The notes under the pieces are model-generated. The model saw only the letters and a program-made list of their open reading frames with translations, had not been told where the DNA came from and ran no database searches. 64,000 nt of DNA, from contig OY282376.1 in the NCBI GenBank assembly GCA_958295845.1, forward strand, positions 372,001 to 436,000, in the 5' to 3' direction. Shown here one piece after another: positions 2,676-43,732 of this stretch (its first letter is position 1; each line of letters opens with the position of its first letter). The position numbers and the translations under genes were made by a program. The stretch is from Caldilineaceae bacterium (GTDB taxonomy: Bacteria; Chloroflexota; Anaerolineae; Caldilineales; Caldilineaceae).

Positions 2676-3575
2676 ATGTCAGGACTTAAACTCGGCGCGC
2701 ATATGTCGATCGCAGGCGGCGTCAGCAACGCACTCGATGCAGCTGCGGACGTAAACAGCAACGCCGTCCAGGTTTTTATGAAGAGCAACCGCCAGTGGGC
2801 AGGTCCGCAGGTGAAAGAAGAGGATGTCTCCCGTTGGAACGAGCAGATGCCCGATAGCGGCGTCGCCTACGCCGTCAGCCACGCCTCCTACCTCATCAAC
2901 CTGGCCTCCCCCAAAGATCCTCTGTGGGAGAAAAGCATCGCCGCTTTCGCCGATGAGTTGGAGCGCGCCCACGCCTACGGCATCCGGCACGTGGTACTCC
3001 ATCCCGGCGCCCACACCGGCAGCGGCGAAGAGGCCGGACTGCAGCGCATCGCCGACGCCCTCAACCGCATCCACGCCCAACTGCCCGACTGCACCGGCGT
3101 AACGACCCTGCTGGAGTTGATGGCAGGGCAGGGCACCACCTTGGGCTACACCTTCGCCCAACTCGCCCAGATTATCGAACAGGTGGAGGAAAAAAATCGC
3201 GTCGGCGTCTGTCTCGACACCTGCCACGCACTCGCCGCCGGCTACGATTTTCGCACCGCTGAGGGCTACGAGGCCATGATGGCCGAGCTTGAGGAGACGG
3301 TCGGCATCGACAGCGTCGGCTGCTGGCACTTCAATGACAGCTCAAATGACCACGGCAGCCGCAAAGACCGGCACGAGCACATCGGCGAAGGTTTCGTCGG
3401 CGTAGAAGGCTTCCGCCACATCCTCAACGACCTGCGCTGGGACGGCGTACCCATGCTCCTCGAGACACCCAAAAAAGAAGACGGCGACGGCAAAGACGAG
3501 CAGAACCTGCAGGCCCTGGCCGCCTTAGTAACCGACGTCAACCGCCTCCCCGAAGGCCTCCGTCCCAGCGCCTGA
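2676..3575 (+). CDS. nfo: Deoxyribonuclease IV (endonuclease IV)
   Basis: A 299-residue AP endonuclease of the TIM-barrel family, which cleaves DNA 5' to abasic sites and trims 3' blocking groups in base excision repair. The N-terminus (LGAHMSIAGGVSNAL) and the metal-ligand motifs are present in order: HPGAHTG, LLELMAGQG, CLDTCHALAAGYD, WHFNDS, GSRKDRHEHIGEG and MLLETPKK. Length fits the family. GGAGG at 2665-2669, six bases before the ATG, sets the start. It is monocistronic, flanked by repeat-rich spacers. Confidence 0.95.
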   Translation: MSGLKLGAHMSIAGGVSNALDAAADVNSNAVQVFMKSNRQWAGPQVKEEDVSRWNEQMPDSGVAYAVSHASYLINLASPKDPLWEKSIAAFADELERAHAYGIRHVVLHPGAHTGSGEEAGLQRIADALNRIHAQLPDCTGVTTLLELMAGQGTTLGYTFAQLAQIIEQVEEKNRVGVCLDTCHALAAGYDFRTAEGYEAMMAELEETVGIDSVGCWHFNDSSNDHGSRKDRHEHIGEGFVGVEGFRHILNDLRWDGVPMLLETPKKEDGDGKDEQNLQALAALVTDVNRLPEGLRPSA

Positions 3576-3593
3576 CTTCAGAGGGCTACAGCC

Positions 3594-3612
3594 ATTACCC
3601 ACTATCCCCTGC
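3594..3612 (+). repeat. Short heptad array
   Basis: ATTACCC 3594 and ACTATCC 3601, followed by CCTGCCGTC as the end box. It lies 18 bp after the nfo stop and marks the left side of the accessory island. Confidence 0.6.
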
Positions 3613-3805
3613 CGTCATGGACGGTGGCTCTTGGGTCTCGCAGACCTGACATTCACAACCTGGGGTGTAGCTTGCCCAATATGCCTGCCCGCCTCCCCCA
3701 AAGCCGGCAAACAATTTTAGCCACCGATGGCATGAATTTCCCGCCAGGTTGTTCCCACCCCAAATGTGGCCTGCCCCCTTCCGTCCTGGCAGTATTGATG
3801 CAGTA

Positions 3806-3842
3806 TTGATGCATTGATGAAGAAACGCTATGCTAATGCATC
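3806..3842 (+). promoter_or_regulatory. VapB-like promoter with overlapping operator inverted repeat
   Basis: A -35-like TTGATG (3806-3811) and a -10-like TATGCT (3829-3834) are spaced 17 bp. A perfect 8-bp inverted repeat, GATGCATT (3808-3815) and AATGCATC (3835-3842), flanks the -10 and ends one base before the ATG. Toxin-antitoxin operons are usually repressed by RHH antitoxin binding to such a site. The predicted start point is at about 3841, and no Shine-Dalgarno precedes the ATG, so the mRNA may be leaderless. Confidence 0.5.
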
Positions 3843-4100
3843 ATGAGAATCGCAGTCTCCCTTGACGACCAGCTTGCAAAGCAGGTGCGTCGCGCAGCCG
3901 AAGCCCGCGGCATCAGCGTCAGTGCCTTTATCGCCATAACGTTGGATGACGCTCTGAAGCGTCGCGAAACGTCGGAGTCGCCTCCCTTCCGGCTGGTGAC
4001 CGTGCGGGGCGCACACCCCCGCCCGGGTATCGATCTCGACCGACCGAGGGCGCTCGACGCACAGGATGACGAAGCCCGGTTCGGGCAAGGCAGTCGGTGA
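3843..4100 (+). CDS. Ribbon-helix-helix antitoxin, VapB/CopG-like
   Basis: An 85-residue protein. The first 40 residues (MRIAVSLDDQLAKQVRRAA then RGISVSAFIAITLDDALKR) match the beta-strand, helix, helix pattern of RHH antitoxins. The rest is a charged, probably disordered toxin-binding tail. Such antitoxins neutralise a PIN RNase and autoregulate their promoter. The stop overlaps a GTGA at 4097-4100, where a toxin gene should begin, but that toxin is broken. Confidence 0.7.
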   Translation: MRIAVSLDDQLAKQVRRAAEARGISVSAFIAITLDDALKRRETSESPPFRLVTVRGAHPRPGIDLDRPRALDAQDDEARFGQGSR

Positions 4101-4316
4101 CTCGGGACGCTGCTTCCCGACGTAAATGTTCTGATATATGCCCACATCGAGGACTCCGTTCCCGAACACCCCGAGTATGCAACGTGGGTCACTCGTCTGG
4201 CGACAGGACCGGAACCCTTCGCCCTCTCCGTCCTCGTTCTGGCCGGCTTCGTCCGCGTCGTAACTAATCCGCGAGTCTTCGCCCCGGTCGCCTCACTTGC
4301 TTTTCCACTTCCTTGA
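4097..4316 (+). pseudogene. VapC-like PIN-domain toxin remnant
   Basis: From 4110 the frame reads LLPDVNVLIYAHIEDSVPEH and later a VLVLAGFVRVVTNPRVFAP segment. That is the N-terminal half of a VapC PIN-domain RNase, including the first catalytic Asp (in DVN) and the VLAGF helix region. The expected GTG start at 4097, coupled to the antitoxin stop, is one frame off (four extra bases after VTR). The frame ends at TGA 4314-4316, about half the usual 135-145 residues, so the distal acidic residues are missing. It is probably inactive, leaving an orphan antitoxin. Confidence 0.65.
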
Positions 4317-4683
4317 ACACGTGATCAACGACCACATACACCCATAGACAGAAGTCGTCAAAGTACAATGTCTTTCGACCGGTCCTCCTGGTGTGACACA
4401 CTAGTATGGTATCGACGCATTTTCACTCGTCACAAAAAACTTGCACGTCGATATATGGCTTTCCTGCATCTTGCCGCTACACGCATCTGGCTCGACCGAA
4501 ATGTCAACGAGCCTTAACCACGCTCACACTTTCAGAGGTCTATGTATGCGCCTTTACACTAAGTTGACTGCACATACCTTCTGCATTTACATCAACCGCC
4601 TGTTGGGCGAACATGACCACCTATGAATCAAGAAACCGGCCATTCCCAACGAGCATAAGGCCCCATAACACACTTAAACTTCT

Positions 4684-4746
4684 ATATTAAAGGCTGCCGT
4701 TAATATGGAAGCAATTTCCGGCCATATTAAAGGCTACCGTTAATAT
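4684..4746 (+). repeat. Two near-identical 23-bp palindromic sites exactly 40 bp apart
   Basis: Sites at 4684-4706 and 4724-4746 have perfect ATATTAA / TTAATAT arms around AGGCTGCCG or AGGCTACCG. Most inner positions are also self-complementary (GGC/GCC). The pair sits in the 580-bp gap 4317-4897, which holds no gene I can support. It looks like paired protein-binding sites. No promoter placement is evident, because the flanking genes converge here. Confidence 0.6.
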
Positions 4747-4897
4747 AGCCGCTCCCGCGCTGCCCTTCCTTCCCGCGCGCGCAAAGTTAACCGCCGTCGG
4801 ATTCGTAGCACGGCATTGATGGCACCCTGCTAGTGGCGTGGTCTACTATTGTGGCCCCTGGCTTTTCAGTTACCGGACGCGAGCCAAAGCAATCTCT

Positions 4898-6703
4898 CTA
4901 TGGAGTTCTTGAAAGAACTGGGTTAAAGGGGGCGCGTGACTCTCGTAAGACGATGATCCTAGCACTGTCCGTATCGTCGGCTAACTGCTGCGCGATACTA
5001 TGTTCGTATGTAGTGACCAAGAGTTGCCGGGGAGAGCCTTCCCGCGTAGCTGTGGCCAAAGTCGCAGCGACTGCGTGACGAACTTGGGGATCAAGGTGTT
5101 CGAGGGGTTCGTCGAACCATGCGAAGGGGAGGGAAGTCGTAGTACCCATGACGATCAAGTGCGTGACTATTCTGGCCCACGTCCGCTCCCCACCGCTGAG
5201 TGTGTCCCATCCTAGCTCCAAATCACCCCGTAGCCGTGTGATCGACCCGTCGGCTCTAAAGTTGAGTCCATTATTGGTGAACAGGTGCTTCCAACGCCCT
5301 CGCACTTCTCTTGACAGCGGTTCGATGCGAGATTGGATAACGTGCTCCACCGCTTCTCGCAGCACCTTCGCCCCTGCAAGGGCAGTGGCTTCCCGTCGAT
5401 ACGCAAGCCGGATCATTTCCTCCTCCCTACGAATCTGGTCATCCGAGGCGATCTGGACTCTTAGCGATTCAAGACGAGACTGCGCTCCGCCAAGCCGCTG
5501 ATTGTGTTCGTCAAGATCAGCACTTGCTTGTTGGTAAAAAGCGTCCGCATCGTCTCGGGTGGGAACATTGTCTCCAGCGTCGATGCTAGGTGGCTGAAGC
5601 GCATCAAGTTGGGCGAGTAACCGGGAGACCCCCAGTGCGTGCGTCTGCATCGCCCCGAGAGCCTCTTCGAGGCGCGTTACCTCCGCCCTTGCGTCTTCCT
5701 GGTGTGTCGTATGAACAGTTACCGCCGAGGTACGCTGATGAAAGGGAAGTGGCCGCATACAGGTCGGACAGACCGCGTGGTCTCTGTCGAGCAATCTCAC
5801 TGCCTGTTCGGCGGCGGTGATGACGGAACGTGCTGTGACCGCGCCCTCAGTCATTTCGGCAATTGCATGTTCCGCGTTCTCCAATTCCGCACGCAATTCA
5901 AAGTCGATCGACTCCTTTCTTTCAGGGGGGACTGGCCGACCGAGCAGGTCCTCAGTCATGGCCAAAAGACGAGAACGTTGCTGTTCGTACTGTTCCATTT
6001 GGCCCACGAGCGCGAGATGGCGTTCAACTAAAGACCGCTGCGCGGCAGCAGCGTCCCGAACTTGCTCAAGTTCTGTGCCGCGTTGGCTGAGATGTGTGAT
6101 CTCTTCTTCTAGTTCGGCGATTTCTCCTTCCAGAACAGTCCGATTCTCAACGCGCTTCCTGGTAGTCGACCGGAGTGCCGCTCGAGCCTTCTCGGCCTCT
6201 TTGGCAACCGACTCGGCAGTCTCGGCCGCGCTGAGCAGGTGGGCGACACCGAAAGCATCATGGAGGTGGCCTTCTAGGTTGAGGGCATCACTTGCTGCAA
6301 TGTGACCCCCGCCCAACATCATAGATAAACGACCGGCTACAGGGAGTTCTATCCCTAATGCCTGTTCCATTTCTGTGTTGGCCAACCTTTCGGTGAGGCT
6401 TGCTCCATCCATTCTATACGTCGCTGTAGGGGCCCCCCGCCGCTTCGCGGTGCGCCTGATGGTAAGTTGGCGTCCGTCGGGGAGTTCGAACTCGACCTGG
6501 GCCTCCGCGCTCTCAGCGCCGGCTCGTATGCTGGCCTTCGGATCGACGTTGCTGTGCTGTCCGAACACTGCCCAAGCGAGACCGTACACAAGGGATGTCT
6601 TCCCCACCCCATTGGGCGCAACAACAAAGGTCGTGCCGGGGTCGAGATGTAGGTCGAGGTCCTCGTAGGAACGCCAGTTGCGAAGGCGGAATCGATGAAT
6701 CAT
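4898..6703 (-). CDS. Rad50/SbcC-like zinc-hook AAA ATPase
   Basis: A 601-residue ABC-type ATPase of the SMC/Rad50/RecF class. Walker A is APNGVGKTS (29-37), the ABC signature LSGGE is at 502-506, Walker B FAWFDEP at 527-533, and the H-loop region TTYEHS at 564-569. Between them are two heptad-rich coiled-coil arms (about 160-300 and 335-450) around a CPTC zinc hook at 312-315. Such proteins bind and remodel DNA, often with a nuclease partner; none is encoded beside it. The ATG overlaps the stop of the upstream unknown gene (ATGA), so the two are translationally coupled. At 601 residues it is compact: real SbcC/Rad50 proteins exceed 850. The island context suggests a defence role; this is inference. 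Confidence 0.85.
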   Translation of the reverse strand: MIHRFRLRNWRSYEDLDLHLDPGTTFVVAPNGVGKTSLVYGLAWAVFGQHSNVDPKASIRAGAESAEAQVEFELPDGRQLTIRRTAKRRGAPTATYRMDGASLTERLANTEMEQALGIELPVAGRLSMMLGGGHIAASDALNLEGHLHDAFGVAHLLSAAETAESVAKEAEKARAALRSTTRKRVENRTVLEGEIAELEEEITHLSQRGTELEQVRDAAAAQRSLVERHLALVGQMEQYEQQRSRLLAMTEDLLGRPVPPERKESIDFELRAELENAEHAIAEMTEGAVTARSVITAAEQAVRLLDRDHAVCPTCMRPLPFHQRTSAVTVHTTHQEDARAEVTRLEEALGAMQTHALGVSRLLAQLDALQPPSIDAGDNVPTRDDADAFYQQASADLDEHNQRLGGAQSRLESLRVQIASDDQIRREEEMIRLAYRREATALAGAKVLREAVEHVIQSRIEPLSREVRGRWKHLFTNNGLNFRADGSITRLRGDLELGWDTLSGGERTWARIVTHLIVMGTTTSLPFAWFDEPLEHLDPQVRHAVAATLATATREGSPRQLLVTTYEHSIAQQLADDTDSARIIVLRESRAPFNPVLSRTP

Positions 6704-7602
6704 ACGGCCACCTCGACGAGTTCATCTAAGCGGGACCTGTAGCCCTTCTCGGATAGCTGTCCGAGCTGAGCCTCCTGGACTATAGTGGTAAGCCACCGAG
6801 TTTCCCGATCTCCGAAATTGCCCCAAGTGACCTGCTTGGCCTCTATCCTGGCGCGGGCCCCCGCGGCAGACACGTCACTCACTACCTTGCTTGCCAACCT
6901 GTAAGGATCCAGGGCCGATTCGGGATCGGTTGAGGGATCAAGCATGGCAGTGTTCAAGGGCTGAAACTCAGGAATCATGCCCCTCAGCCACACTTCGCAT
7001 GCCTTTGCCGCGTCGGTGATTGACCGCTGCAGACGGGGTGCCCGCATTTCGCCCGACGGCGTTTCAATGGCTCCTTGCACGTCACCTCGGTCCACTACCA
7101 CTGCGAGGGGCCTCTGCCCAGTGGAGGTGTAGAGTACCGCGTGGGAATCAGGGAATGCACTAAAGACCCTGACAATGTCTCCGGCCCTACTGATGAGGCC
7201 GTGGTCGAGATCGGTCGAATTCGGCTCCGGGACGACGCGGATACGCATACCACGGGCCTGAATCACCGAGGCTGAAGCCAACCCAACAGCTACAGAGGCA
7301 AAGTCAGGCCTGACTGAGGCCGTGGGATCAACCTTGAGTCGCAGATGGTCCTGGAGCGCCTCACCAAACCCACTAAATTGTTCGATGGTCTGAGAACGCC
7401 GGGCTAGGAGTTGCTCGATCGACGGCCTAGATGCATAGGGATCCACGCCGCGCGCTGCGGTGATCGATCTAATGAAGGCTTCAGCTGCCCGACGCTGCTC
7501 CTGTGGCAACTCTTCGAGCGCAGGAGGCTCGTTGCGACTGCCCTCCAGGTAGTCCAAAAAGGAATCACGAAACCTGCTAAGGGTGTCAGAATCGTTACTC
7601 AC
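6700..7602 (-). CDS. Unknown protein between sigma-like and Rad50-like genes
   Basis: 300 residues from a GTG at 7602, chosen because GGGAGGA lies just upstream; an in-frame start at 7647 would extend it by 15 residues. I do not recognise a catalytic motif. The N-terminus is helical and acidic (FRDSFLDYLEGSRNEPPALE). A conserved-looking ARGVDPYASRPSIEQLLAR segment (about 50-68) precedes a mixed alpha/beta middle with a hydrophobic core (LYTSTGQRPLAVVVDRGDV) and a helical C-terminus. Position between the sigma-like gene and the ATPase, with a 4-bp overlap to the latter, argues for a shared pathway, perhaps as adaptor or regulator. Confidence 0.7.
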   Translation of the reverse strand: MSNDSDTLSRFRDSFLDYLEGSRNEPPALEELPQEQRRAAEAFIRSITAARGVDPYASRPSIEQLLARRSQTIEQFSGFGEALQDHLRLKVDPTASVRPDFASVAVGLASASVIQARGMRIRVVPEPNSTDLDHGLISRAGDIVRVFSAFPDSHAVLYTSTGQRPLAVVVDRGDVQGAIETPSGEMRAPRLQRSITDAAKACEVWLRGMIPEFQPLNTAMLDPSTDPESALDPYRLASKVVSDVSAAGARARIEAKQVTWGNFGDRETRWLTTIVQEAQLGQLSEKGYRSRLDELVEVAV

Positions 7603-7643
7603 ATGGTCCTCCCTATTACCATATGTCCTACTGATCAAATGGA

Positions 7644-8330
7644 TCAAAACGGGTAGTCGGGGTGACCTTCGAGGGAACGAAAAGCGGCATTGTAGATTTG
7701 GCCGATCCGCTGGCTGGTCAAACCAAGTCGGTCAGCAACTTCACTGCGGCTGTAGCCGCGGAAGTGAATCGCAAAGAATATCTCTTGGGCCCGGTCATCA
7801 AGAATTTCTCGCGCCAGATCACTCAATTTGAGCACATCCTCCATAACAAGGTACTCGGCTTCCAGATCATCACAGTTGTTAGGGAGCAATTCAAAGAACG
7901 AAGGTCCCATCTCTCCTTCTGGCCCTTCACTTCCAACATCGCCCGACACGAGCCGCAGTTCGGACCGATAGTCCGTACCGCGGAGCCCCTTCCCAGAAGC
8001 CTCTAATGCGTCAGCAGCCTTGTTATGGGCGATCGTGAACGCCAAGCCCTCCCATGTGCCCTTACGACGCTCCGGCGGGAATTCGAGGAGCGCGTGAAAT
8101 GCTTCGCTGAGAACGTCGTCAGCACTTACTCCAGTCCCCTTCAGAATTCGTTCTACGCCACCTGTTCCGTTTGTTTGACTCGCTTCAACCCGTGGGCGGG
8201 GCTGTCTAGGATGCCTCGGAAAAAGGGTCTTCTGGATCTTAGCGTACATGATGTCGAGGATCCGCTCGAGGCGTTTCCTGTCTGTCAATAGCGGGTGTTC
8301 AGAGTCAGACGTGTATTTCCTAGATGACAT
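7644..8330 (-). CDS. Sigma-70-like / HTH transcription factor
   Basis: 228 residues from the ATG at 8330. An in-frame extension to 8408 is possible but would run into the divergent promoter region. Residues about 70-130 (ADDVLSEAFHALLEFP and the following AFTIAHNKAADALEA segment) resemble sigma region 2. The C-terminus (FRGYSRSEVADRLGLTSQR, then IGQIYNAAFRSLEG) is a region-4 helix-turn-helix. It is the first gene of the minus-strand trio and is divergent from the ubiquitin-like operon. It may be an alternative sigma factor or a sigma-derived regulator for one or both operons. No anti-sigma gene is obvious, unless the next gene serves that role. Confidence 0.7.
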   Translation of the reverse strand: MSSRKYTSDSEHPLLTDRKRLERILDIMYAKIQKTLFPRHPRQPRPRVEASQTNGTGGVERILKGTGVSADDVLSEAFHALLEFPPERRKGTWEGLAFTIAHNKAADALEASGKGLRGTDYRSELRLVSGDVGSEGPEGEMGPSFFELLPNNCDDLEAEYLVMEDVLKLSDLAREILDDRAQEIFFAIHFRGYSRSEVADRLGLTSQRIGQIYNAAFRSLEGHPDYPF

Positions 8331-8439
8331 GTCACTACTAATGTCGTAAATCGCATCAAAAATGAAAATCTGTGCCCGGGCTTTCGCTGAGATGGCAAAA
8401 TGCGACATAAGGATTAACACACTTCAAAAGGAGAGACCA
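8331..8439. promoter_or_regulatory. Divergent intergenic region of the island
   Basis: The 109 bp between the sigma-like gene (minus) and the Ubl gene (plus) must carry both promoters. It contains ATGTCG (8341-8346) and CGACAT (8403-8408) as separated inverted half-sites. AGGAGA at 8429-8434 serves as the Ubl ribosome-binding site, five bases before the ATG. No clear consensus -35/-10 pair is visible, consistent with use of a dedicated sigma factor. Confidence 0.45.
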
Positions 8440-8700
8440 ATGACCGAATCTTCCAACTTCCAACCAATCCGCCGCCGCATCCCGTTCACCATCGACGGGC
8501 AACCCTTCACGACCGACGACCTCAGCCAGCGTTCCTCTGCGCTTCTTCGTCTGGCAGGCTTGGACCCTGCCATCTTCGACCTAGGGGAATTGGCGGGAAA
8601 GGAGCACCCCCAGACGAAGCGCTTCGTCGATGATGAGCTCGTCAACATAGTCAAGGACGCTCGTTTCGTATCAATCCGCCAGAGCGCGCCGGTAGCCTAA
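8440..8700 (+). CDS. Ubiquitin-like (multiubiquitin-family-like) beta-grasp protein
   Basis: 86 residues. The core (RIPFTIDGQPFTTDDLSQRS, LLRLAGLDPAIFDL, then VDDELVNIVKDARFVSI) follows the pattern of single domains of bacterial multiubiquitin proteins: a beta hairpin with a [I/V][D/N]G turn, a helix with RLAG, an acidic turn and a final RFVS strand. It is placed first in an operon with E2-like and JAB-E1 genes. Its stop overlaps the next start (TAATG). It ends RQSAPVA with no terminal glycine, unlike canonical conjugated modifiers, so the activated residue is unclear. Only one domain is present, whereas the named family often has several. Confidence 0.75.
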   Translation: MTESSNFQPIRRRIPFTIDGQPFTTDDLSQRSSALLRLAGLDPAIFDLGELAGKEHPQTKRFVDDELVNIVKDARFVSIRQSAPVA

Positions 8701-9047
8701 TGCAGCCGGGTATTGAAGCGTTTATTCAGAACATGACCGAGTTCGGCTTCGAGACTACAATTGAAGCCGAACTGGTCATCTGCAGGGTGGTGGCTCTGGA
8801 CGGTGCATTCGCTGGTAGGCCAGTCGAAACCGGTGTCGCTACTGGAGAGCTTGAACCGTGGCCCCATGTACCTCCGCACTGGCTTCACTTCCCTGGCAGC
8901 GTCAGATTTGCGCAGACTAACAGCCAACCCTCTCCAAAGTCTGGGTGGTTGATGCACAGCCGTCAGATAACAGGGTGGGGTGACGCTCCCGCTGGAGTCG
9001 CGTGGGCTAGCCATGTCCGAGCAGCCCTCAGTGAGGCGGTCTCGTGA
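8700..9047 (+). CDS. Prokaryotic E2/UBC-like protein
   Basis: 115 residues, overlapping both neighbours (TAATG before, TGATG after). It carries a PPHWLHFP strand, an S-rich turn, then SGWLMHSRQITGW and a C-terminal helix (HVRAALSEA). These resemble divergent bacterial E2-family proteins that accompany ThiF/JAB proteins. The only cysteine is in VICRVV near residue 28, in an early strand rather than at the usual E2 active-site position, so a classical thioester mechanism is doubtful. Assignment leans on operon position as well as motifs. Confidence 0.65.
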   Translation: MQPGIEAFIQNMTEFGFETTIEAELVICRVVALDGAFAGRPVETGVATGELEPWPHVPPHWLHFPGSVRFAQTNSQPSPKSGWLMHSRQITGWGDAPAGVAWASHVRAALSEAVS

Positions 9048-10549
9048 TGCGTCGAACGTCGGTAGCAATGACCGTAGCGATCGAGGAGGCGCTCGTCCAG
9101 AGGCTAGTTCGCGACGATGGTCAGGAAGACATCTGTCTTGCCACTTACCGTCCGTCCACGGGCCTCTCCCGTTTCAGTGCCCTGATTCGTGCGGTCGTCC
9201 CGCCTGAACCTGGAGATCGGCTGGTCCACGGGAATGCAACCGTTACAGCCGACTACATCTTACGAGGTGCCGAAGCAGCGCAGGAAGATAAGTGCGGCTT
9301 GGTCCTCCTTCACAGCCACCCCGGAGCCAGTCACTGGCAGACAATGAGTGCCCCGGACCGTGCTTGCGAGGCCAGCTATGCCAATCTCGTCCGCGAAGTC
9401 ACAGGGCTTCCTCTGGTCGGCATGACCCTTGCTACAGGGGACCGCTCATGGTCTGCTCGTCACTGGGACGTTGGAGTTGGCCGAGCCGTCCACTGCACTC
9501 ACTCCACGAACGTTCGGGTCATCGGTGGAAAGTTCGCGGTGACGTGGAACGACGCAGTTCAACCACCTCCACAGCCCAGCACCCGTCAGACTAGGACCGT
9601 AAGTGCGTGGGGCGACCGGACACAGGCCGATCTCGTCCGGCGGAGAGTCCTCGTAGTCGGAGCCGGTAGTGTCGGGCTTGACGTCTTTGTGCGACTCGCT
9701 GCATCCGGGCTCTGCCACTTGACTGTGATGGACTTCGACATAGTCGAAACCCACAACCTGGACCGCCTCATTGGCGCAGAACGCCGCGACGCCCGCCTGA
9801 GGAGACCCAAAGTCCATGTCGCCCTCCGAGAAGCAAGGAAAGCAGCCACTGCAGCTAGGTGCAATATCAAGGTTTCCGACCGATCCATCTGCGAGCTGGA
9901 AGGACTGCGGCTCGCGCTCGATCATGACCTGATCTTCTCATGCGTTGACCGACCCTGGCCACGAGCCGTACTCAACTCTCTGGCTTACTCGGACCTCATT
10001 CCTGTCATCGATGGAGGCATCGCCATCGATACGTTCAGTGGCGGAGAGATGCGGAATGCCACTTGGCGCTCTCATGTTGTCAGGCCAGGGAGGCCGTGCA
10101 TGAGTTGCAACCGTCAGCTCGATCTCGGCTTAGTCGCTCCCGAACGGCAAGGGCTGCTCGATGATCCCGCTTACATCCAGCATGCAGGGGAGAGTTTCAG
10201 GCCAATCAATCCGAACGTGGCGCCGCTCTCGGTCAACGTTGTGGCCAGCATTCTTGCCCAATACGTCAGCTTCAGCGTGGCTCCTGCTGGTTTCGGCGAT
10301 CCCGGCCCACTTCAGTATGCGCTCAGCACCCACCATCTTGAATGCCGCGAAGACTCAGCAAGCCCGCACTGTACCACTGAAGTCGCCGAAGGCGTAGGCG
10401 ATCATCGTGTCTGTCTCACAGGTCTCCACAAAGACGCGGAACGAACACGGCAATTCACAGGGGCGGTGGGAGCAAGTGTGCGCCTTCTGCGGTTGATCGA
10501 CGATCGAATTGAAGGAGTAACTACGTGGCTGAACCTACTCGGAGATTGA
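9047..10549 (+). CDS. JAB peptidase-E1 (ThiF-type) fusion
   Basis: 500 residues from the ATG at 9047, which overlaps the E2-like stop. The N-terminal JAB/JAMM isopeptidase domain (about 10-145) has the zinc motif HSHP with S101 and D104 (H89, H91). The C-terminal E1-like adenylation domain (about 195-420) has GAGSVG (205-210), the ATP-binding DFDIVETHNLDR (229-240), PKV lysine 255 and a CVD segment ending at D301. A CMSC pair (351-354) and Cys433/442 may bind zinc or provide the thioester cysteine. Expected roles: processing or removal of the Ubl, and ATP-dependent activation of it. The fused pair is typical of bacterial Ub-like operons. Confidence 0.9.
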   Translation: MRRTSVAMTVAIEEALVQRLVRDDGQEDICLATYRPSTGLSRFSALIRAVVPPEPGDRLVHGNATVTADYILRGAEAAQEDKCGLVLLHSHPGASHWQTMSAPDRACEASYANLVREVTGLPLVGMTLATGDRSWSARHWDVGVGRAVHCTHSTNVRVIGGKFAVTWNDAVQPPPQPSTRQTRTVSAWGDRTQADLVRRRVLVVGAGSVGLDVFVRLAASGLCHLTVMDFDIVETHNLDRLIGAERRDARLRRPKVHVALREARKAATAARCNIKVSDRSICELEGLRLALDHDLIFSCVDRPWPRAVLNSLAYSDLIPVIDGGIAIDTFSGGEMRNATWRSHVVRPGRPCMSCNRQLDLGLVAPERQGLLDDPAYIQHAGESFRPINPNVAPLSVNVVASILAQYVSFSVAPAGFGDPGPLQYALSTHHLECREDSASPHCTTEVAEGVGDHRVCLTGLHKDAERTRQFTGAVGASVRLLRLIDDRIEGVTTWLNLLGD

Positions 10550-10689
10550 CCTCCAAGCCAATAACTTTCCAGACTGCGAATCGAATAACGATGGCCTCCA
10601 TCGGAATTCTAGGCAGCTTCAGACACTCGTTATAGTGTGGCTGCCCCCGATGACCAGACCACGAAATGGGAAAGATAAGGTGCATCCAG

Positions 10690-11090
10690 ACGGATCAAGA
10701 TCGCTCTTCCAGTACTTGCCGTAAAGCGTGTTCAAGATCATGAAATCAAACTCGCGCCCGGGGAACGCGTCCCCGGACAGCGTCGAGGCGTACTGGATGT
10801 TGTCCGCCTCGACGCCCTCCCCCTTTAGGATCAGATCAGCCTTGCTGATGGCGTATGTCTCCGGGTTGACCTCCTGGCCTCAAAGATGGATCGAGACCTC
10901 CCCGCCCTGGTCGTGCGCCAGCGTATTCTCCGCAACCACCAACGTGCCGCCTGTGCCGCAGGGCCTGTCGCAGACGAGATAGGGGGGCGACTGCATCTGG
11001 TCGGCGACCGGCTTGAAAATGAGAATCGCCATAAGCTCGACCACATCGCGAAGGCTGGATTCGTACGGTGTTATAGTTACATAGTATTTC
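10690..11090 (-). pseudogene. Type I restriction HsdM (N6-adenine methylase) fragment
   Basis: On the minus strand the segment RDVVELMA, then YLVCDRPCGTGGTL, VAENTLA and EVSIHL, a TGA stop in frame, then GQEVNPETYAI, SKADLILKGEG, and FDFMILNTLYGKYWKSDLD, matches the central part of HsdM. The SAM-binding (D/G)xCGTGG motif is recognisable. The catalytic NPPY has become NTLY, and a TGA replaces the Phe of the usual IHLFGQE. Both ends of the gene are missing, with no hsdS or hsdR nearby. It is a dead remnant of a restriction system in the island. Confidence 0.8.
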
Positions 11091-11140
11091 GTGGGGCTGG
11101 GCGCAGGCTGCGGTTGTCTGTGGTTGTCAGTTGATGTCAT

Positions 11141-11630
11141 TCATGCAGGAGCAGTATATGGTGGCATATGACCAAAGGGGTACGCGAACGAAAATGGTAC
11201 CGAGATTCGGCAGACGGGGCATTGGGGGGCAGGAAGCTCCTGAAGATCCTTGAAGAGCGCCAAAAGTTCTGGCCAGGGCGCTCAGGGCGGCTGTGTGCGG
11301 TTCTTGTGATTGGGGGACCTGTGCGCGTGGTCAGGGGATGCCTGAACTCTGATTAATGGGATTGTGGGGATTGGCTGTGATGTGACTGTACGACTGTCAC
11401 CTATCTGGACTGCAGCTTGTGCAGGCATGCGGTTGAGATGATTGACGACCACGGGCACGCCAGCCTGCCATTGACGACGCGGGCGATGAAGCTGACTCGC
11501 TAGGCGCGCATGAGTTCAGCCTGGGCACCAGCGCTTACGTTGATCAAGAGGATTATGCAGAAAGCGGTCCAATTCGGACCGCAGGCGTTCTGTCTTCCCT
11601 CAATTTGAACAGGATCCAGAACCGCAAAAT
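11141..11630. other. Gene-free stretch at the right end of the island
   Basis: No ORF with family resemblance or a ribosome-binding site was found on either strand, and no hairpin or repeat stood out. Confidence 0.5.
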
Positions 11631-11633
11631 GCC

Positions 11634-11670
11634 ACTAAAAACCAAAAACTGCCTACTAAAAACTGCCCTT
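11634..11670 (+). repeat. Heptad array, AAAA type
   Basis: ACTAAAA 11634, ACCAAAA 11641, ACTGCCT 11648, ACTAAAA 11655, end box ACTGCCCTT 11662-11670. It runs into the stop codon of the protease-deacetylase gene (11670-11672). Confidence 0.9.
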
Positions 11671-13688
11671 CACCAGTCCACCTCCAACAACCGCAACAGC
11701 TCCCCCGCACCCGTCGTCCCTCGCACGCGCACGCGCCGCAACTGGAAAAGATCATCAGTCGAGTGCGTGGCCCCCGCGACGATCGTCACTCCTCCCCAGA
11801 ACCCGGCGCTCTCAAAAATCCGGATCGTGTTGCTGTCATAGTGCCCAAAAGGATACGTAATGAAACGCGGGCGTACCCCCAGTTCATGCTCGATCGTTTC
11901 CGCACTGCCCAGCGCCTGCCAGACCAGGAAGTCATCGTTCCGATTCCGCAAACTGGCATGATTACGCCCGTGGGACTCGATGAACATGCCGCCGGCCTGC
12001 ATCTCGCGCGCCATGTCCCACGACAGATAGAGCGGGTTGCCCTCGTCCATAAAGTCGGATACCACGAAGAACATCCCCGTCATGCCGAACTCCGTCAACA
12101 ACGGAAACGCGTTCTCGTAGTTGTCGCGGTAGCCGTCGTCAAACGTGAGAATGACCGGTTTTTCCGGCAGCGGCTTGCCCTGGTTCAAATGGTCCACCAG
12201 ATCATACATGCTGATCGGCGTATACCCGCCGTCGGCCAGCGCCTGCAGGTGGCTCCTGAACAGCGCGGGCGATACCGACAGGTCGTGCCGGTAAACATCC
12301 GACCCGGCCGGCGGCACGCTTACATAGTGATACATCAGAATCGGCGCCTGCACCTGCCGTATCGCTCCGTCGGCAACAGGCGGCGGGTTCGGCGACACAA
12401 TCGACTTCGGCTGCTCCTCCGGCCCATAGTGGACCGCGGGCAGCATCAGAACCGTCGCGCCGCTGTACACCGCCGGCAGCATGACCTCATACTCCTCACG
12501 CTCCTTGGCCGTCTCCTCCCGGATAATCTGCGCCAAAATCCAGTCGTGATACTGGCTCACCCGCGTATAGACGCCGTAAAACGCCGGCCGCGCGCAGCCA
12601 ATGCCAAAGCTCACTAGCCCGGCCAGCTGCCAGCCGCCTTCCCCGTCCGGCACCACCAGGGGACCGCCGCTGTCGCCGTGGCAGGCGTCCTTACCCCCCT
12701 GCTTGAATCCGGCGCACAGCATGTTCTCGGTGATCATCCTGCCCATCGAGCTGGTGCACTCTTCCTCCGACACGATCGGGAGCTCCACCTGCTGCAGGTC
12801 ATAGGAGAGCAATCCCCCGCTGCCGTCCTCGGCAAGCGCGCCCCAGCCGATCACTGTTCCCAACGTGCCCGGCCCGGCCAGCGTCAGGCTGTCCGCGCCC
12901 AGAATCGTGACCAGCTCCGTATCGGCCGGCTCTGTCAGATGCAGCAGCGCGAGGTCGTGAGCGAAATCGTGGGCAAAGTCGAATCCGTAGCGAGGATGCA
13001 CGACAATCCGGTCAACCGACCTTTTCTGCCCCTGGCCGCTGTCCAGCCTGTGAGGGCCAATCGTCGCCACAATATCCTCCGGCGCCGCGTTTATAACGCA
13101 GTGGGCGGCCGTCAGCGCCCAGCTGGGCGCCACGAGCGATGCCCCGCAGAAGGTGTGGTAGCCGGGCTCGGTGAAGGCCTGGATCGCGACCATCCACGGC
13201 CAGGCCCCGGGCGCCGCCTTCTCACCGCCGACGATCTGCCCCTGCAGGCCCGCAGGCGGCGGCGTGGCCGTCGCGATAGGGGTCGCACTCGACTGCCCGT
13301 CCCCTGCGGCGTTGGCTTCGACCGCAGGCCCGGACAGTGCAACGCGATCGGGGCCGGCAGTGTTGGCGCGCACCGACAATCCCAAGCCGTCCGGGGCCGG
13401 GGAGACATTCTCACCAGCTGCCGCTGCTTCCAGGACCGCCGCCTCTTCAGGGGCCGCCGGCCCCGGCATGGCGATATGGTTGCACGAGATCAGGATTACA
13501 AGCGGCGCCAGAACAGACAGGATGCTGAGACCGCCATAGGACCGGACCGAGCGCCGCGCGGAGGCAACTTTGCCCGTCCTGTTTGGAACTCGTCTGCCTT
13601 GGATGCCAGCACGAAATGCGCCCCTGTTTGCGAGGGGCGCATTGGGAACGGAGTTTCGAAAAGACAGCCGGGGAAAGCGCAAATTCAT
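11670..13688 (-). CDS. Trypsin-like serine protease fused to polysaccharide deacetylase (predicted lipoprotein)
   Basis: 672 residues. A hydrophobic segment (54-68) ends in LISC (Cys69), a plausible lipobox, then a low-complexity Ala/Pro linker. An S1 trypsin domain starts at the activation motif IVGG (152-155) and has the complete triad: His196 in TAAHC, Asp245 in HDLALL, Ser340 in GDSGGP. A second linker (about 395-445) leads to a CE4 polysaccharide deacetylase: PILMYHYV, LTFDDGY (516-520 FDDGY) and SHGRNH (572-577). The protein should act at the outer face of the membrane, cutting protein and N-deacetylating glycan. The fusion is unusual. The stop lies in a heptad array. Confidence 0.9.
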   Translation of the reverse strand: MNLRFPRLSFRNSVPNAPLANRGAFRAGIQGRRVPNRTGKVASARRSVRSYGGLSILSVLAPLVILISCNHIAMPGPAAPEEAAVLEAAAAGENVSPAPDGLGLSVRANTAGPDRVALSGPAVEANAAGDGQSSATPIATATPPPAGLQGQIVGGEKAAPGAWPWMVAIQAFTEPGYHTFCGASLVAPSWALTAAHCVINAAPEDIVATIGPHRLDSGQGQKRSVDRIVVHPRYGFDFAHDFAHDLALLHLTEPADTELVTILGADSLTLAGPGTLGTVIGWGALAEDGSGGLLSYDLQQVELPIVSEEECTSSMGRMITENMLCAGFKQGGKDACHGDSGGPLVVPDGEGGWQLAGLVSFGIGCARPAFYGVYTRVSQYHDWILAQIIREETAKEREEYEVMLPAVYSGATVLMLPAVHYGPEEQPKSIVSPNPPPVADGAIRQVQAPILMYHYVSVPPAGSDVYRHDLSVSPALFRSHLQALADGGYTPISMYDLVDHLNQGKPLPEKPVILTFDDGYRDNYENAFPLLTEFGMTGMFFVVSDFMDEGNPLYLSWDMAREMQAGGMFIESHGRNHASLRNRNDDFLVWQALGSAETIEHELGVRPRFITYPFGHYDSNTIRIFESAGFWGGVTIVAGATHSTDDLFQLRRVRVRGTTGAGELLRLLEVDW

Positions 13689-41476: not shown

Positions 41477-43732
41477 CTAAAGGTTCAGCAGGCTGTAAAT
41501 TGCGGAAACGCCCCTGTACGGCAAGCCTTTTGTGTTTCTAAAGCCGTGTTTTTCTAACTCTTTCTCTATGTCTGCGTATGATCCGCCAGCAGACTTGACT
41601 CTCTTAGCAATCTTCGATGCTGCTTTTCGAGTCTTCCCCGCACCTTTTTTCCTGCCTTTCGATCGATTACGACGGTTCCGTTTCGCAGTCTTTAACCCAC
41701 TCTTGGTTTTCGATGAGTCTTGCTCTATCCCAGCAGCGAGTTCACTCGCATTGGGTAACAGGTCGATGTCGCTCGCAACGCGACACAGTAGACACACTAC
41801 TCTACCAAGAGCCCTATTGAAGATTAACCGCCTGTCGATAGGCTCGTCGTCTAGCCGAGCGATCTCATCCTTCCAATCAGTCAACTCCGACCGGAAACTG
41901 TCTTCCCATTCGGGGAACATACGGTATTTCTGCAGATTGTTTTGTGGGTACCGGTCTGACGGGATGTTGGCAAGATGTGTTTCGAACAAATTTTCCAGCG
42001 AATTTTCATCGTTCAATAGTGCCTCTCGCTCTTCAACAGCTAAACATAACCTTTGCCGACGCTCCTCAACATTGCTCATTGCTTTACGTCGCTCATCTGT
42101 CAGAATATCATGGAGCAGTCCAAGAAAGGTCAATCTATCATGATGTCCAATTAATTCCGGGCCAAGCTCTTTCTCCATCATCAACCGATCCGAATGTTCG
42201 CGCTCATGCCAATACTGCAACTGAAAATTTTCATCTTCGTCAAGATCATCATCTTTTATGATCTCCAGCATTTCGTTGTAGGGTAGTCCAAAAAACTGAT
42301 TGTTCAGGTTCACGCCTTGCAAAATATGGTCAAAAGTCGGCACCTTAGCCCCCATTTCTTCCAATTCGGCCAATGCTGATTCCAACGAATCACTTATCGG
42401 CAACTGAGCTTCGATGTGCGCATCCCTGTGGCACAAATCACAAACCAACTCGTGCGCGTCCCCGCACTGCTTTTCCAGGCTCCAACGCTTCCACGCGCGC
42501 CATGTCCCGCAACGGCTACACTCCTTGCCAAACGGTTCGCCACAGGTCTGACAAGCATGGCTGGCGGCAGGAGATATGGAATTGCAGTTGTCACACCAGA
42601 CAGTCACGGCATCGCCTACATCCTCCTGCACCGCCCGTGGTTCCAGGGACCATTCACGGTCGTCCCCGGGCAGCCCGTGGACCTCTGCGTTTGCCGCCAA
42701 ATCAAGAATCAAACAGTTACCGTTGTTTTCCTTCGGGCGCAAACCTCGGCCCACCATCTGCAAATAAAGTGTCAGACTCTTGGTAGGCCGGGTGATGACC
42801 ACACACGAGGCGTCCGGCAGATCAAAACCCTCGGTGGCAACGGCAACGTTAACGAGAACTCTGAGATTCCCCCTCTTGAAAGAGGTGATGAGCCTGGCTC
42901 GTTCTTCATTCCCGGTTTCACCGAGCATTACGGCGGCAGGTACACCGGCATCCCTGAACAAGGCTGCCAGATTATGGGCATGATCAACCGAAACCGCATA
43001 GACGATGGTCTGACGGTCCTGGGCGTGCTCTTCCCAGAACTTGAGTGCTCCAGCCGTCATGATATGGTCCTGGTTGGCCGCTACGATGCCGGAGTCCGTG
43101 AAATCTCCGTCCATGCCAACCTCGCCGCCGCGGATAATCCACTGGGATGACGGCCTGATAACCTGAGCGCCGCACAGATGATTGCCGGACTGCAAGTCAA
43201 CAACGGCCGGACCACAGAGCAACGCGTCGAAAAGGTGGTCGAATCCTTCCTTGTGGGACAAACGCCAGGGGGTGGCAGTCATCCCCAGTATGCGTCCGGG
43301 CCACTGTTGCATAGCTCGCGTCCAGCCATCCGCGGAAGCATGATGGGCCTCGTCAATGATCATCAGATCGTCGGCGTCATATTTTGGCCACACGTTAGCT
43401 CTGGCGGTGCGGCGACTAACAGTCTGGGCCATCAGGATGGTGACACTGTTCTGCCTCGCCGGGGCATCCTCGCCAGGATTCCAGCGAACATCGACACTTG
43501 CCGATACATTGGCGTTGACAAGCAGGTCACGAGTCTGCGCGGCCAGTTCTTTGCGATGGGTCAGCCAGACGGCTTTTCGCCCGCCTTTGAGGACCGCACT
43601 CAGCAACGCCCCGGCAATGACGGTCTTGCCGCCGCCGGTAGGGAGCTGCATCATTACGCGCGCCTTTTCGGAATTTAGGGCGGCCTGGACCCCATCTACC
43701 AAGTTTTTCTGGTAATCGCGGAGTTGTATCAT
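41477..43732 (-). CDS. SF2 helicase with zinc clusters and recombinase-like C-terminal HTH
   Basis: 751 residues. DEAD/DEAH helicase core: Walker A LPTGGGKT (30-37), DEAH (127-130), MTATP (151-155), and motif VI QMVGRGLRP (325-333). Then a Cys-rich block (C380, C383, C394, C397, C405, C408, C431, C434) that should bind two zinc ions, a helical region, a Lys/Arg-rich linker (about 680-720) and a final HTH-like segment (SYADIEKELEKHGFRNTKGL, PYRGVSAIYSLL). That segment looks like the DNA-reading tail of serine recombinases. Similar helicases occur in phage and restriction contexts. Lower GC than its neighbours suggests transfer. Confidence 0.82.
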   Translation of the reverse strand: MIQLRDYQKNLVDGVQAALNSEKARVMMQLPTGGGKTVIAGALLSAVLKGGRKAVWLTHRKELAAQTRDLLVNANVSASVDVRWNPGEDAPARQNSVTILMAQTVSRRTARANVWPKYDADDLMIIDEAHHASADGWTRAMQQWPGRILGMTATPWRLSHKEGFDHLFDALLCGPAVVDLQSGNHLCGAQVIRPSSQWIIRGGEVGMDGDFTDSGIVAANQDHIMTAGALKFWEEHAQDRQTIVYAVSVDHAHNLAALFRDAGVPAAVMLGETGNEERARLITSFKRGNLRVLVNVAVATEGFDLPDASCVVITRPTKSLTLYLQMVGRGLRPKENNGNCLILDLAANAEVHGLPGDDREWSLEPRAVQEDVGDAVTVWCDNCNSISPAASHACQTCGEPFGKECSRCGTWRAWKRWSLEKQCGDAHELVCDLCHRDAHIEAQLPISDSLESALAELEEMGAKVPTFDHILQGVNLNNQFFGLPYNEMLEIIKDDDLDEDENFQLQYWHEREHSDRLMMEKELGPELIGHHDRLTFLGLLHDILTDERRKAMSNVEERRQRLCLAVEEREALLNDENSLENLFETHLANIPSDRYPQNNLQKYRMFPEWEDSFRSELTDWKDEIARLDDEPIDRRLIFNRALGRVVCLLCRVASDIDLLPNASELAAGIEQDSSKTKSGLKTAKRNRRNRSKGRKKGAGKTRKAASKIAKRVKSAGGSYADIEKELEKHGFRNTKGLPYRGVSAIYSLLNL

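What the first reader, a model, noticed from the sequence alone, without database searches (positions are those of the whole stretch)
8440..10549. Compact ubiquitin-like conjugation operon (Ubl, E2-like, JAB-E1 fusion)
Three genes overlap by TAATG and TGATG junctions and encode a modifier with a beta-grasp pattern, an E2-like protein and a fused JAB isopeptidase/ThiF-E1 with the JAMM (H89, H91, D104) and ATP-binding residues intact. Seen directly: overlaps and motifs. Known: such sets exist in bacteria and some act in anti-phage defence. Inferred: this one is a complete system, since activation, transfer and removal functions are all present. It has no CBASS cyclase nearby, so it is a stand-alone type.
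Basis: partly seen in the sequence, partly recalled or inferred. Interest (0 to 1): 0.85.

Follow-up and report, generated by a model that had tools for sequence, protein, structure and literature searches.

The report
Sigma-factor-controlled bacterial ubiquitin-like operon
A compact bacterial ubiquitin-like tagging operon is real, but its most informative part was missed: next to it lies a gene set encoding its own transcription switch (a sigma factor, a partner protein and a Rad50-like ATPase), and the same custom promoter sequence stands in front of both gene sets, which makes the control of such probable immune operons directly testable.

Summary
The three-gene operon (8440-10549) is real. 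Structure models give a beta-grasp Ubl and a UBC-fold E2-like protein; gene 3 is a JAB-E1 fusion with intact JAMM and adenylation motifs. The closest solved relatives are Citrobacter BubA, BubB and BubCD. First, the E2-like protein has no catalytic cysteine (invariant GWxxHSR instead), the E1 has none at the ThiF position, and the Ubl ends in invariant Val-Ala, so transfer must use Bub-like, non-canonical chemistry. Second, it is not stand-alone: a divergent operon (4898-8330: sigma factor, unknown partner, Rad50-like ATPase) belongs with it. A two-block motif, TTTC-N17-CGACA, precedes both operons in all nine related loci, divergent or tandem; the ubl copy is absent from nearly all loci carrying other regulators. 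Homologous cassettes elsewhere carry swapped regulators: sigma plus M78 peptidase, with its own motif TAAC-N17-CGACTA at both promoters in 8/8 loci; HTH-M78 (CapH/CapP-like); HTH plus kinase. The best reading is a Bub-like conjugation operon under a dedicated sigma switch that probably senses DNA damage. The ATPase's sensor role and phage defence remain inferred. The sigma module also occurs alone.

The parts
8440..8700 (+). Ubiquitin-like protein, 86 aa, one beta-grasp domain, C-terminus ...RQSAPVA (V85 50/50, A86 48/50 in homologues; no Gly)
   Evidence: AF2 model pLDDT 86.9; best VIA Z 11.4 to Methylobacterium multi-Ub 9d5b, 8.8 to Citrobacter BubA 9ea8_B
8700..9047 (+). E2-like (UBC/UEV fold) protein, 115 aa, without catalytic Cys; invariant PPHW and GWxxHSR...W..HVR
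   Evidence: AF2 pLDDT 94.2; best VIA Z 8.2 to Citrobacter BubB 9eae_C, 7.7 to TSG101 UEV
9047..10549 (+). JAB metalloprotease fused to ThiF/E1 adenylation domain (GTG start at 9044 also possible); JAMM E28/H90/H92/S102/D105, GAGSVG 206-211, CxxC 352-355, C443 (numbered from 9044)
   Evidence: Pfam ThiF 9.8e-26; PDB best hit Citrobacter BubCD 2.7e-16, profile 3.2e-25; conservation
8382..8407 (+). Promoter-like motif TTTC-N17-CGACA of the ubl operon, 58 bp before its ATG
8342..8367 (-). Promoter-like motif TTTC-N17-CGACA of the divergent sigma operon, about 12 nt before the likely sigma ATG at 8330 (leaderless)
7644..8330 (-). Sigma-70-family protein (ORF open to 8420; ATG 8330 fits relatives and the promoter)
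   Evidence: Pfam Sigma70_r4 26.6 bits, above cut-off; TIGR02937 7e-9, below cut-off; homologous to the module-B ECF sigma, hhalign Prob 99.7
6700..7647 (-). Partner protein of unknown fold (GTG 7602 may be the true start); candidate anti-sigma or signal transducer
   Evidence: conserved third member of the triad; C-terminal half related to a protein with a ZAS-like HxxxCxxC N-terminus, hhalign Prob 90.8; no family hit
4898..6703 (-). Rad50/RecF/SMC-like ATPase with invariant Walker A (GxGKTS), zinc hook CPxCxRP, SxGE signature and Walker B DE
   Evidence: Pfam SMC_N 3e-16, AAA_23; PADLOC mad3 9e-23; PHROG SbcC-like 3e-21; invariants

Best explanation
This is a Bub-like ubiquitin-like conjugation operon (Ubl, cysteine-less E2-like protein, JAB-E1) placed under a dedicated transcription switch encoded divergently: a sigma factor, a partner protein and a Rad50-like ATPase. 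The sigma factor reads the motif TTTC-N17-CGACA in front of its own operon and of the ubl operon, so one signal switches on both (shown: motif, position, recurrence; inferred: binding). At rest the partner protein probably holds the sigma factor; the ATPase senses DNA ends or phage/repair DNA and releases it (inferred). Once made, the E1 adenylates the Ubl C-terminal Ala and the E1/E2-like pair transfers the Ubl to targets without a canonical E2 cysteine; the JAB domain processes or removes it (inferred from homologues). The likely role is anti-phage or genotoxic-stress response. My odds: Bub-like conjugation cassette 0.9; control by the linked sigma factor 0.85; ATPase as DNA-damage sensor 0.5; phage defence 0.5.
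For: Folds and closest relatives are BubA/BubB/BubCD. TTTC-N17-CGACA: 18 sites in nine module-A loci against 3/1/1/1 for spacers 15/16/18/19. The slightly relaxed form lies within 300 bp of ubl in 9/9 module-A loci, 0/2 A', 0/8 B and 1/30 others; chance about 0.0009 per 150 bp; window 3 sites against 0.46 expected. It is found whether the sigma operon is divergent or downstream. In L087 both promoters changed together to TTTC-N17-CAACGTA. An independent module (homologous sigma + HTH-like + M78 peptidase) has TAAC-N17-CGACTA (one site N16) at both promoters in 8/8 loci and in no other locus then held; a third has CGGACA-N11/12-TGCGACGTC at both, decayed on the ubl side of the broken L060. The other regulators beside the cassette are HTH+M78, like the ssDNA-triggered CapH+CapP that control Bub operons (PMC13373217). 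Regulators swap on the E1 tree: 13 changes, shuffled mean 28.6.
Against: No experiment shows transcription, conjugation or defence. The partner protein has no recognisable anti-sigma domain in module A. The sigma/partner/ATPase triad also occurs without a Ubl cassette in four Actinomycetota genomes, so it is a general module, not an obligate partner. Some cassettes close to the window's (L016, L017, L020) have other regulators. The A' sigma is sigma-like by my reading only (no Pfam hit). Genome-wide, the short motif occurs 65 times against 33 for a control, so specificity needs more than these nine bases. PMC13373217 states that Bub operons have not been shown to protect against phage.
Confidence: 0.62

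Rival explanations
1. The sigma/partner/ATPase triad is a target or partner of the Ubl system: Ubl is attached to the sigma factor, partner or ATPase and regulates it, rather than the triad regulating the ubl operon.
For: Tight linkage in both orientations; by analogy CBASS Cap2 acts on a protein of its own operon (PMC10097602).
Against: The same cassette pairs with unrelated regulators (sigma+M78, HTH-M78, HTH+kinase) that swap on the E1 tree, and shared promoters already explain the linkage. A substrate shared by all these modules is not apparent.
Confidence: 0.13
2. Addiction or plasmid-maintenance module: the cassette with its HTH-M78/HigB-like neighbours acts as a toxin-antitoxin-like stabiliser of mobile elements.
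For: Many relatives lie on plasmids and the HTH-M78 partner is annotated HigA beside a RelE-like ORF; Iyer 2006 proposed addiction or defence for such operons (PMC1779556).
Against: The window locus is chromosomal, in a variable interval between nfo and a trypsin/NodB gene, and carries no toxin-like ORF; sigma-type modules contain no toxin candidate.
Confidence: 0.1
3. The triad is an independent neighbouring system (for example a MADS mad3-like ATPase unit) and the linkage is a defence-island coincidence.
For: The ATPase scores with PADLOC mad3 (9e-23); the triad exists alone in four genomes.
Against: The shared, exactly spaced promoter motif at both operons in 9/9 loci, and its joint change in L087, are not expected for unrelated neighbours. 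In one bacterial family the ATPase occurs only in genomes that also have the cassette (3 of 46 genomes).
Confidence: 0.08
4. A sulphur-carrier or cofactor system rather than protein conjugation.
For: The E1 domain is ThiF/MoeB-like and lacks a visible catalytic Cys; MoeB only adenylates.
Against: UBC-fold partner, JAB fusion, best match BubCD, no sulphur-metabolism neighbours; the Ubl lacks the GG end of ThiS/MoaD.
Confidence: 0.04

Closest known systems
Bub (bacterial ubiquitination-like) pathway, Citrobacter BubA/BubB/BubCD (PDB 9ea4, 9ea5, 9ea8, 9eae, 9eav)
   Same: Ubl, E2-like domain with W.RH motif and no catalytic Cys, and a JAB-E1 fusion; best sequence and fold matches; regulators of the Cap type upstream in many Bub operons
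   Different: Here single or double Ubl as a separate gene, E2-like as a separate gene (fused to the Ubl domains in the Citrobacter plasmid relative), no DUF6527 gene, E1 with CxxC and Ubl end VA; regulator is a sigma/partner/ATPase module; sequence similarity is low
Iyer et al. 2006 operon class 6e (polyUbl, inactive E2/RWD-like, JAB-E1, metal-binding protein Y)
   Same: The first three components and the cysteine-less E2
   Different: No metal-binding protein; often a single Ubl; no sigma module is described in that class (no occurrence of 'sigma' in the paper)
CapH+CapP, CapW and CapK+CapS controllers of immune operons
   Same: Exchangeable regulator genes beside the promoter of Ubl/CBASS-type operons; HTH+M78 pairs occur beside close relatives of this cassette
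   Different: The window has none of them; it uses a sigma factor with a cognate promoter (activation) instead of a repressor that is removed
MADS mad3 / SbcC-Rad50-like ATPases of defence systems
   Same: The ATPase is of this class (PADLOC mad3 9e-23; PHROG SbcC-like 3e-21)
   Different: The other five proteins matched no MADS model among the hits shown; here the ATPase sits with a sigma factor and a partner protein

Membership tests
Bub pathway | JAB-E1 fusion (BubCD) with JAMM and adenylation residues | tested here: met
Bub pathway | beta-grasp Ubl related to bacterial multi-ubiquitin proteins | tested here: met
Bub pathway | UBC-fold BubB with W.RH motif and no catalytic Cys | tested here: met
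   8% identity to 9eae_C, VIA Z 8.2
Bub pathway | DUF6527 gene in the operon (present in the Citrobacter plasmid relative; whether it defines Bub could not be read) | tested here: not met
   DUF6527 found only in L011 (Bradyrhizobium), in none of the cassette loci
Bub pathway | Demonstrated Ubl-protein conjugation | not testable with these tools
   needs biochemistry; the Bub mechanism papers were not in the library
Iyer 2006 class 6e | Tandem Ubl plus inactive E2 plus JAB-E1 plus metal-binding protein | tested here: not met
   single Ubl and no metal-binding gene in the window; the other components are met
Bil (BilABCD) / canonical E1-E2-Ubl systems | E2 with catalytic cysteine | tested here: not met
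   no conserved Cys in 50 homologues; the one Cys column (24/50) is absent from the window protein
Type II CBASS | CD-NTase with fused E2-E1 Cap2 and separate Cap3 | tested here: not met
   JAB is fused to E1, E2 is separate; no CBASS cyclase hit among the seven further window ORFs scanned
CapH+CapP / CapK+CapS controllers | HTH repressor with M78 peptidase, or HTH-STAS-GHKL kinase with STAS-wHTH | tested here: not met
   window has sigma/partner/ATPase; HTH/M78 modules occur in relatives only
Sigma-70-family regulator with cognate promoter | sigma regions 2/4 and a shared -35/-10-like motif at its own and the target operon | tested here: met
   (region 4 above cut-off, region 2 only weak)
Anti-sigma factor (partner protein 6700-7647) | recognisable anti-sigma domain | tested here: inconclusive
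   no Pfam hit; distant link to a ZAS-like protein
MADS | mad gene set around mad3 | tested here: not met
   only the ATPase hits a mad model among the six proteins

The most novel reading that the evidence does not exclude
A new class of controllers of bacterial Ubl (immune) operons: dedicated sigma factors that act with a partner protein and either a Rad50-like ATPase or an M78 peptidase as damage sensor, each with its own promoter code duplicated in front of the controller and of the Ubl operon, and exchanged among otherwise homologous Ubl cassettes.
Probability: 0.55. Interest if true: 0.75.

Novelty: new variant of a known kind. Interest (0 to 1): 0.62.

Why it matters
[quoted passage not shown] PMC13373217). 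The sigma modules found here would add an activator-type controller with a readable promoter code, so targets can be predicted from sequence and the signal can be tested with simple reporters. The Rad50-like ATPase next to a sigma factor suggests a direct route from broken DNA to transcription. The cassette also gives a compact three-gene, cysteine-less E2 lineage for studying how Ubl transfer works without thioester residues.

Tried and rejected
Pfam, NCBIfam, PADLOC and PHROGs for the Ubl, the E2-like protein and the partner gave nothing usable. The idea that the ATPase never occurs without the Ubl cassette held in plasmids, Chloroflexota and Micromonosporaceae but was refuted by four Actinomycetota genomes. 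c11 of module B as a homologue of the window's partner protein: rejected (hhalign Prob 0.7); it looks HTH-like instead. A catalytic Cys in the E2-like protein: a Cys column (24/50) just before PGW exists in other modules only, not in the window. C300 of the E1 as catalytic Cys: sits in the ThiF-core strand and is Ala in L005. Phage and viral-contig searches found no relatives. Genome-wide regulon prediction with the nine-base motif: 65 sites against 33 in the control, too unspecific. The Bub mechanism and diversity papers (PMC12885553, PMC12145246) and PMC11476048 are not held, so their definitions could not be checked.

Full report
WHAT WAS CHECKED. The three ORFs lie where stated: Ubl 8440-8700, E2-like 8700-9047, JAB-E1 9047 (or 9044)-10549, with TAATG and TGATG overlaps. 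The order recurs in about 45 loci found with an E1 profile, mostly Actinomycetota chromosomes and plasmids plus MAGs labelled Chloroflexota, Acidobacteriota, Myxococcota and others. MAG labels can be wrong, so I do not lean on the phyla.

PROTEINS. The E1 is a ThiF-family protein (Pfam 9.8e-26); its best solved relative is Citrobacter BubCD, a JAB-E1 fusion (profile 3.2e-25, next MoeB 1.8e-12, Cap2 3e-4). JAMM E28/H90/H92/S102/D105 (numbered from GTG 9044) are invariant in 48-49 sequences; GxGSVG (S209 in 47 of 49), D230, R241, K256 and D302 in 49. AlphaFold2 models built from 42 homologues are confident: E2-like pLDDT 94.2, Ubl 86.9. The Ubl falls on bacterial multi-ubiquitin proteins (Z 11.4 to 9d5b, 5.0 A over 79 residues; Z 8.8 to Citrobacter BubA, 2.8 A over 72) above ubiquitin (about 7.4). 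The E2-like protein falls on Citrobacter BubB (Z 8.2, 3.8 A over 112), the TSG101 UEV domain (7.7) and E2 enzymes (5-7).

In 50 E2-like homologues no cysteine is conserved; the site where an E2 has its cysteine (by position after PPHW and before the conserved Trp; my reading of the alignment) carries invariant H86-S87-R88. A Citrobacter plasmid relative of BubB shows W.RHR.W and also lacks a cysteine there. The E1 has CxxC and a further Cys (352, 355, 443) but none at the ThiF crossover position; the Citrobacter BubCD relative lacks even these. The Ubl ends in Val-Ala in nearly all homologues. A C-terminal Gly or Ala is used by CBASS cGAS conjugation (PMC10097602), so Ala is compatible with activation. 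Iyer et al. 2006 described such cysteine-less E2-like proteins with JAB-E1 fusions as class 6e and called them inactive (PMC1779556). [quoted passage not shown] I could not read it. Conjugation here is inferred, not shown.

THE NEIGHBOUR THAT MATTERS. On the minus strand, directly divergent, lie a sigma-70-family gene (7644-8330), a 315-aa protein without family, and a Rad50/RecF-like ATPase with Walker motifs and a CPxCxRP zinc hook (4898-6703). The homologous triad sits beside the cassette in L012, L013, L014, L018, L022 (divergent) and L015, L021 and the M. avium plasmid L005 (downstream, same strand). In the window's family of 46 genomes the ATPase occurs in three, all with the cassette.

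PROMOTER EVIDENCE. TTTC-N17-CGACA occurs 18 times in these nine loci against 3, 1, 1 and 1 for spacers 15, 16, 18 and 19. Each locus has one copy before ubl and one before sigma (three of these eighteen promoters in a slightly relaxed form: L018 ubl, L005 sigma, L021 sigma), in either gene arrangement; a few further strict matches lie elsewhere in the loci. In the window they are 8382-8407 (+) and 8342-8367 (-), back to back; three sites in the window against 0.46 expected. The relaxed motif TTT[CA]-N17-CGAC[AG] lies within 300 bp of ubl in 9/9 module-A loci, 0/2 A', 0/8 B and 1/30 other loci; the chance per 150-bp region of the strict form is about 0.0009. The window genome has 65 strict sites against 33 for the reversed pattern, so the motif alone does not define a regulon. 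Three of the nine loci are from one family (window, L012, L022) and are not fully independent; the other six have E1 proteins 58-81% identical to the window's.

INDEPENDENT REPLICATES. Cassettes in Nocardioides, Arthrobacter and others carry a different module: a sigma factor homologous to the window's (hhalign Prob 99.7, 157 columns), a 222-aa HTH-like protein and an M78 peptidase. There TAAC-N17-CGACTA (one copy N16; CGTC in place of CGAC in three copies) occurs exactly twice per locus, before sigma and before the ubl operon, in 8/8 loci and in none of the other loci then held. A third module (L040, L052, L060; sigma-like by eye, plus a protein with a ZAS-like HxxxCxxC motif, plus the ATPase) has CGGACA-N11/12-TGCGACGTC at both promoters; in L060, whose cassette is broken, the ubl-side copy is decayed. 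In L087 the module-A triad faces an intact cassette and both promoters have changed together to TTTC-N17-CAACGTA (read by eye). This joint change of promoter pairs is the strongest evidence that one regulator reads both.

SWAPPING. The remaining cassettes lie beside an HTH-M78 fusion, a separate HTH with M78, or HTH with a protein kinase. On an E1 tree of 49 rows the modules need 13 changes (shuffled mean 28.6), with clear swaps such as L045 (sigma+M78) sister to L035 (HTH-M78), support 98. HTH+M78 corresponds to CapH+CapP, whose protease is activated by ssDNA and which controls Bub operons; with CapW it covers 219 of 544 Bub operons, and CapK+CapS a further 59 (PMC13373217). The slot next to this cassette is therefore a controller slot, and by analogy the window's sigma/partner/ATPase set is its controller. 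That the Rad50-like ATPase senses DNA damage is inference.

LIMITS. Four Actinomycetota genomes carry the triad without any Ubl cassette in the available flanks, again with TTTC-N17-CGAT before sigma, so the module is general and was recruited. L088 has the triad, both motifs and a lone ubl with E2 and E1 lost. No search found a phage relative. I found no paper linking sigma factors with bacterial Ubl operons, but the library lacks most subscription papers, and further Bub papers could already report it.

MOBILITY. In the window's genus the interval between nfo (2676-3575) and the trypsin/NodB gene (11670-13688) measures about 0.1 kb in G004 and G011, 1.0 kb in G012 and 8.1 kb in the window, while the homologous cassettes in G005 and G014 lie on other contigs. 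The six-gene set is thus probably a mobile insert in a variable interval.

VERDICT. The operon is a sister or member of the Bub kind (new variant: three genes, no DUF6527), and the sigma-factor controller with a duplicated promoter code is the new and testable part.

Noticed in passing
window 10834-11140 (-): Short fragments of a type I DNA methyltransferase (PADLOC MTase_I 6.6e-8) in broken frames just downstream of the operon: remnant of a restriction system.
   Followed up: partly
window 11670-13688 (-): One ORF fuses a trypsin domain (2e-61) to a NodB polysaccharide deacetylase (1e-23), an unusual pairing conserved in the genus.
   Followed up: partly
window 3575-11670: The interval between nfo and the trypsin/NodB gene is of very variable length in the genus (about 0.1 kb in two genomes, up to about 14 kb in another): an insertion hotspot.
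   Followed up: partly
window 41477-43732 (-): DEAD/ResIII helicase with a double zinc ribbon, related to defence helicases (PADLOC mREase_IV/PbeA models).
   Followed up: no
L089-L092 (G922, G1050, G901, G965): Sigma/partner/Rad50-like ATPase triad without a Ubl cassette, chromosomal, each with TTTC-N17-CGAT before sigma: a stand-alone autoregulated sigma module with unknown targets.
   Followed up: partly
L030 7549-9028 and L039 7559-9056: Ubl cassette beside an XRE HTH gene plus a Pkinase-family (PF00069) protein: a kinase/HTH controller unlike the GHKL-type CapK.
   Followed up: partly
L009, L028, L030-L032, L034, L036, L039, L041-L044, L046, L047: Two-domain Ubl versions mostly end in GGVA, so Gly-Gly precedes the invariant Val-Ala; the single-domain versions mostly end in APVA or similar.
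   Followed up: no
L088 2729-6644: Sigma triad with both motifs facing a lone ubl gene; E2 and E1 are gone: a decaying locus.
   Followed up: partly
L016 9986-11494: The E1 ORF is split in two, in an otherwise intact cassette: frameshift or stop, or an assembly error.
   Followed up: no
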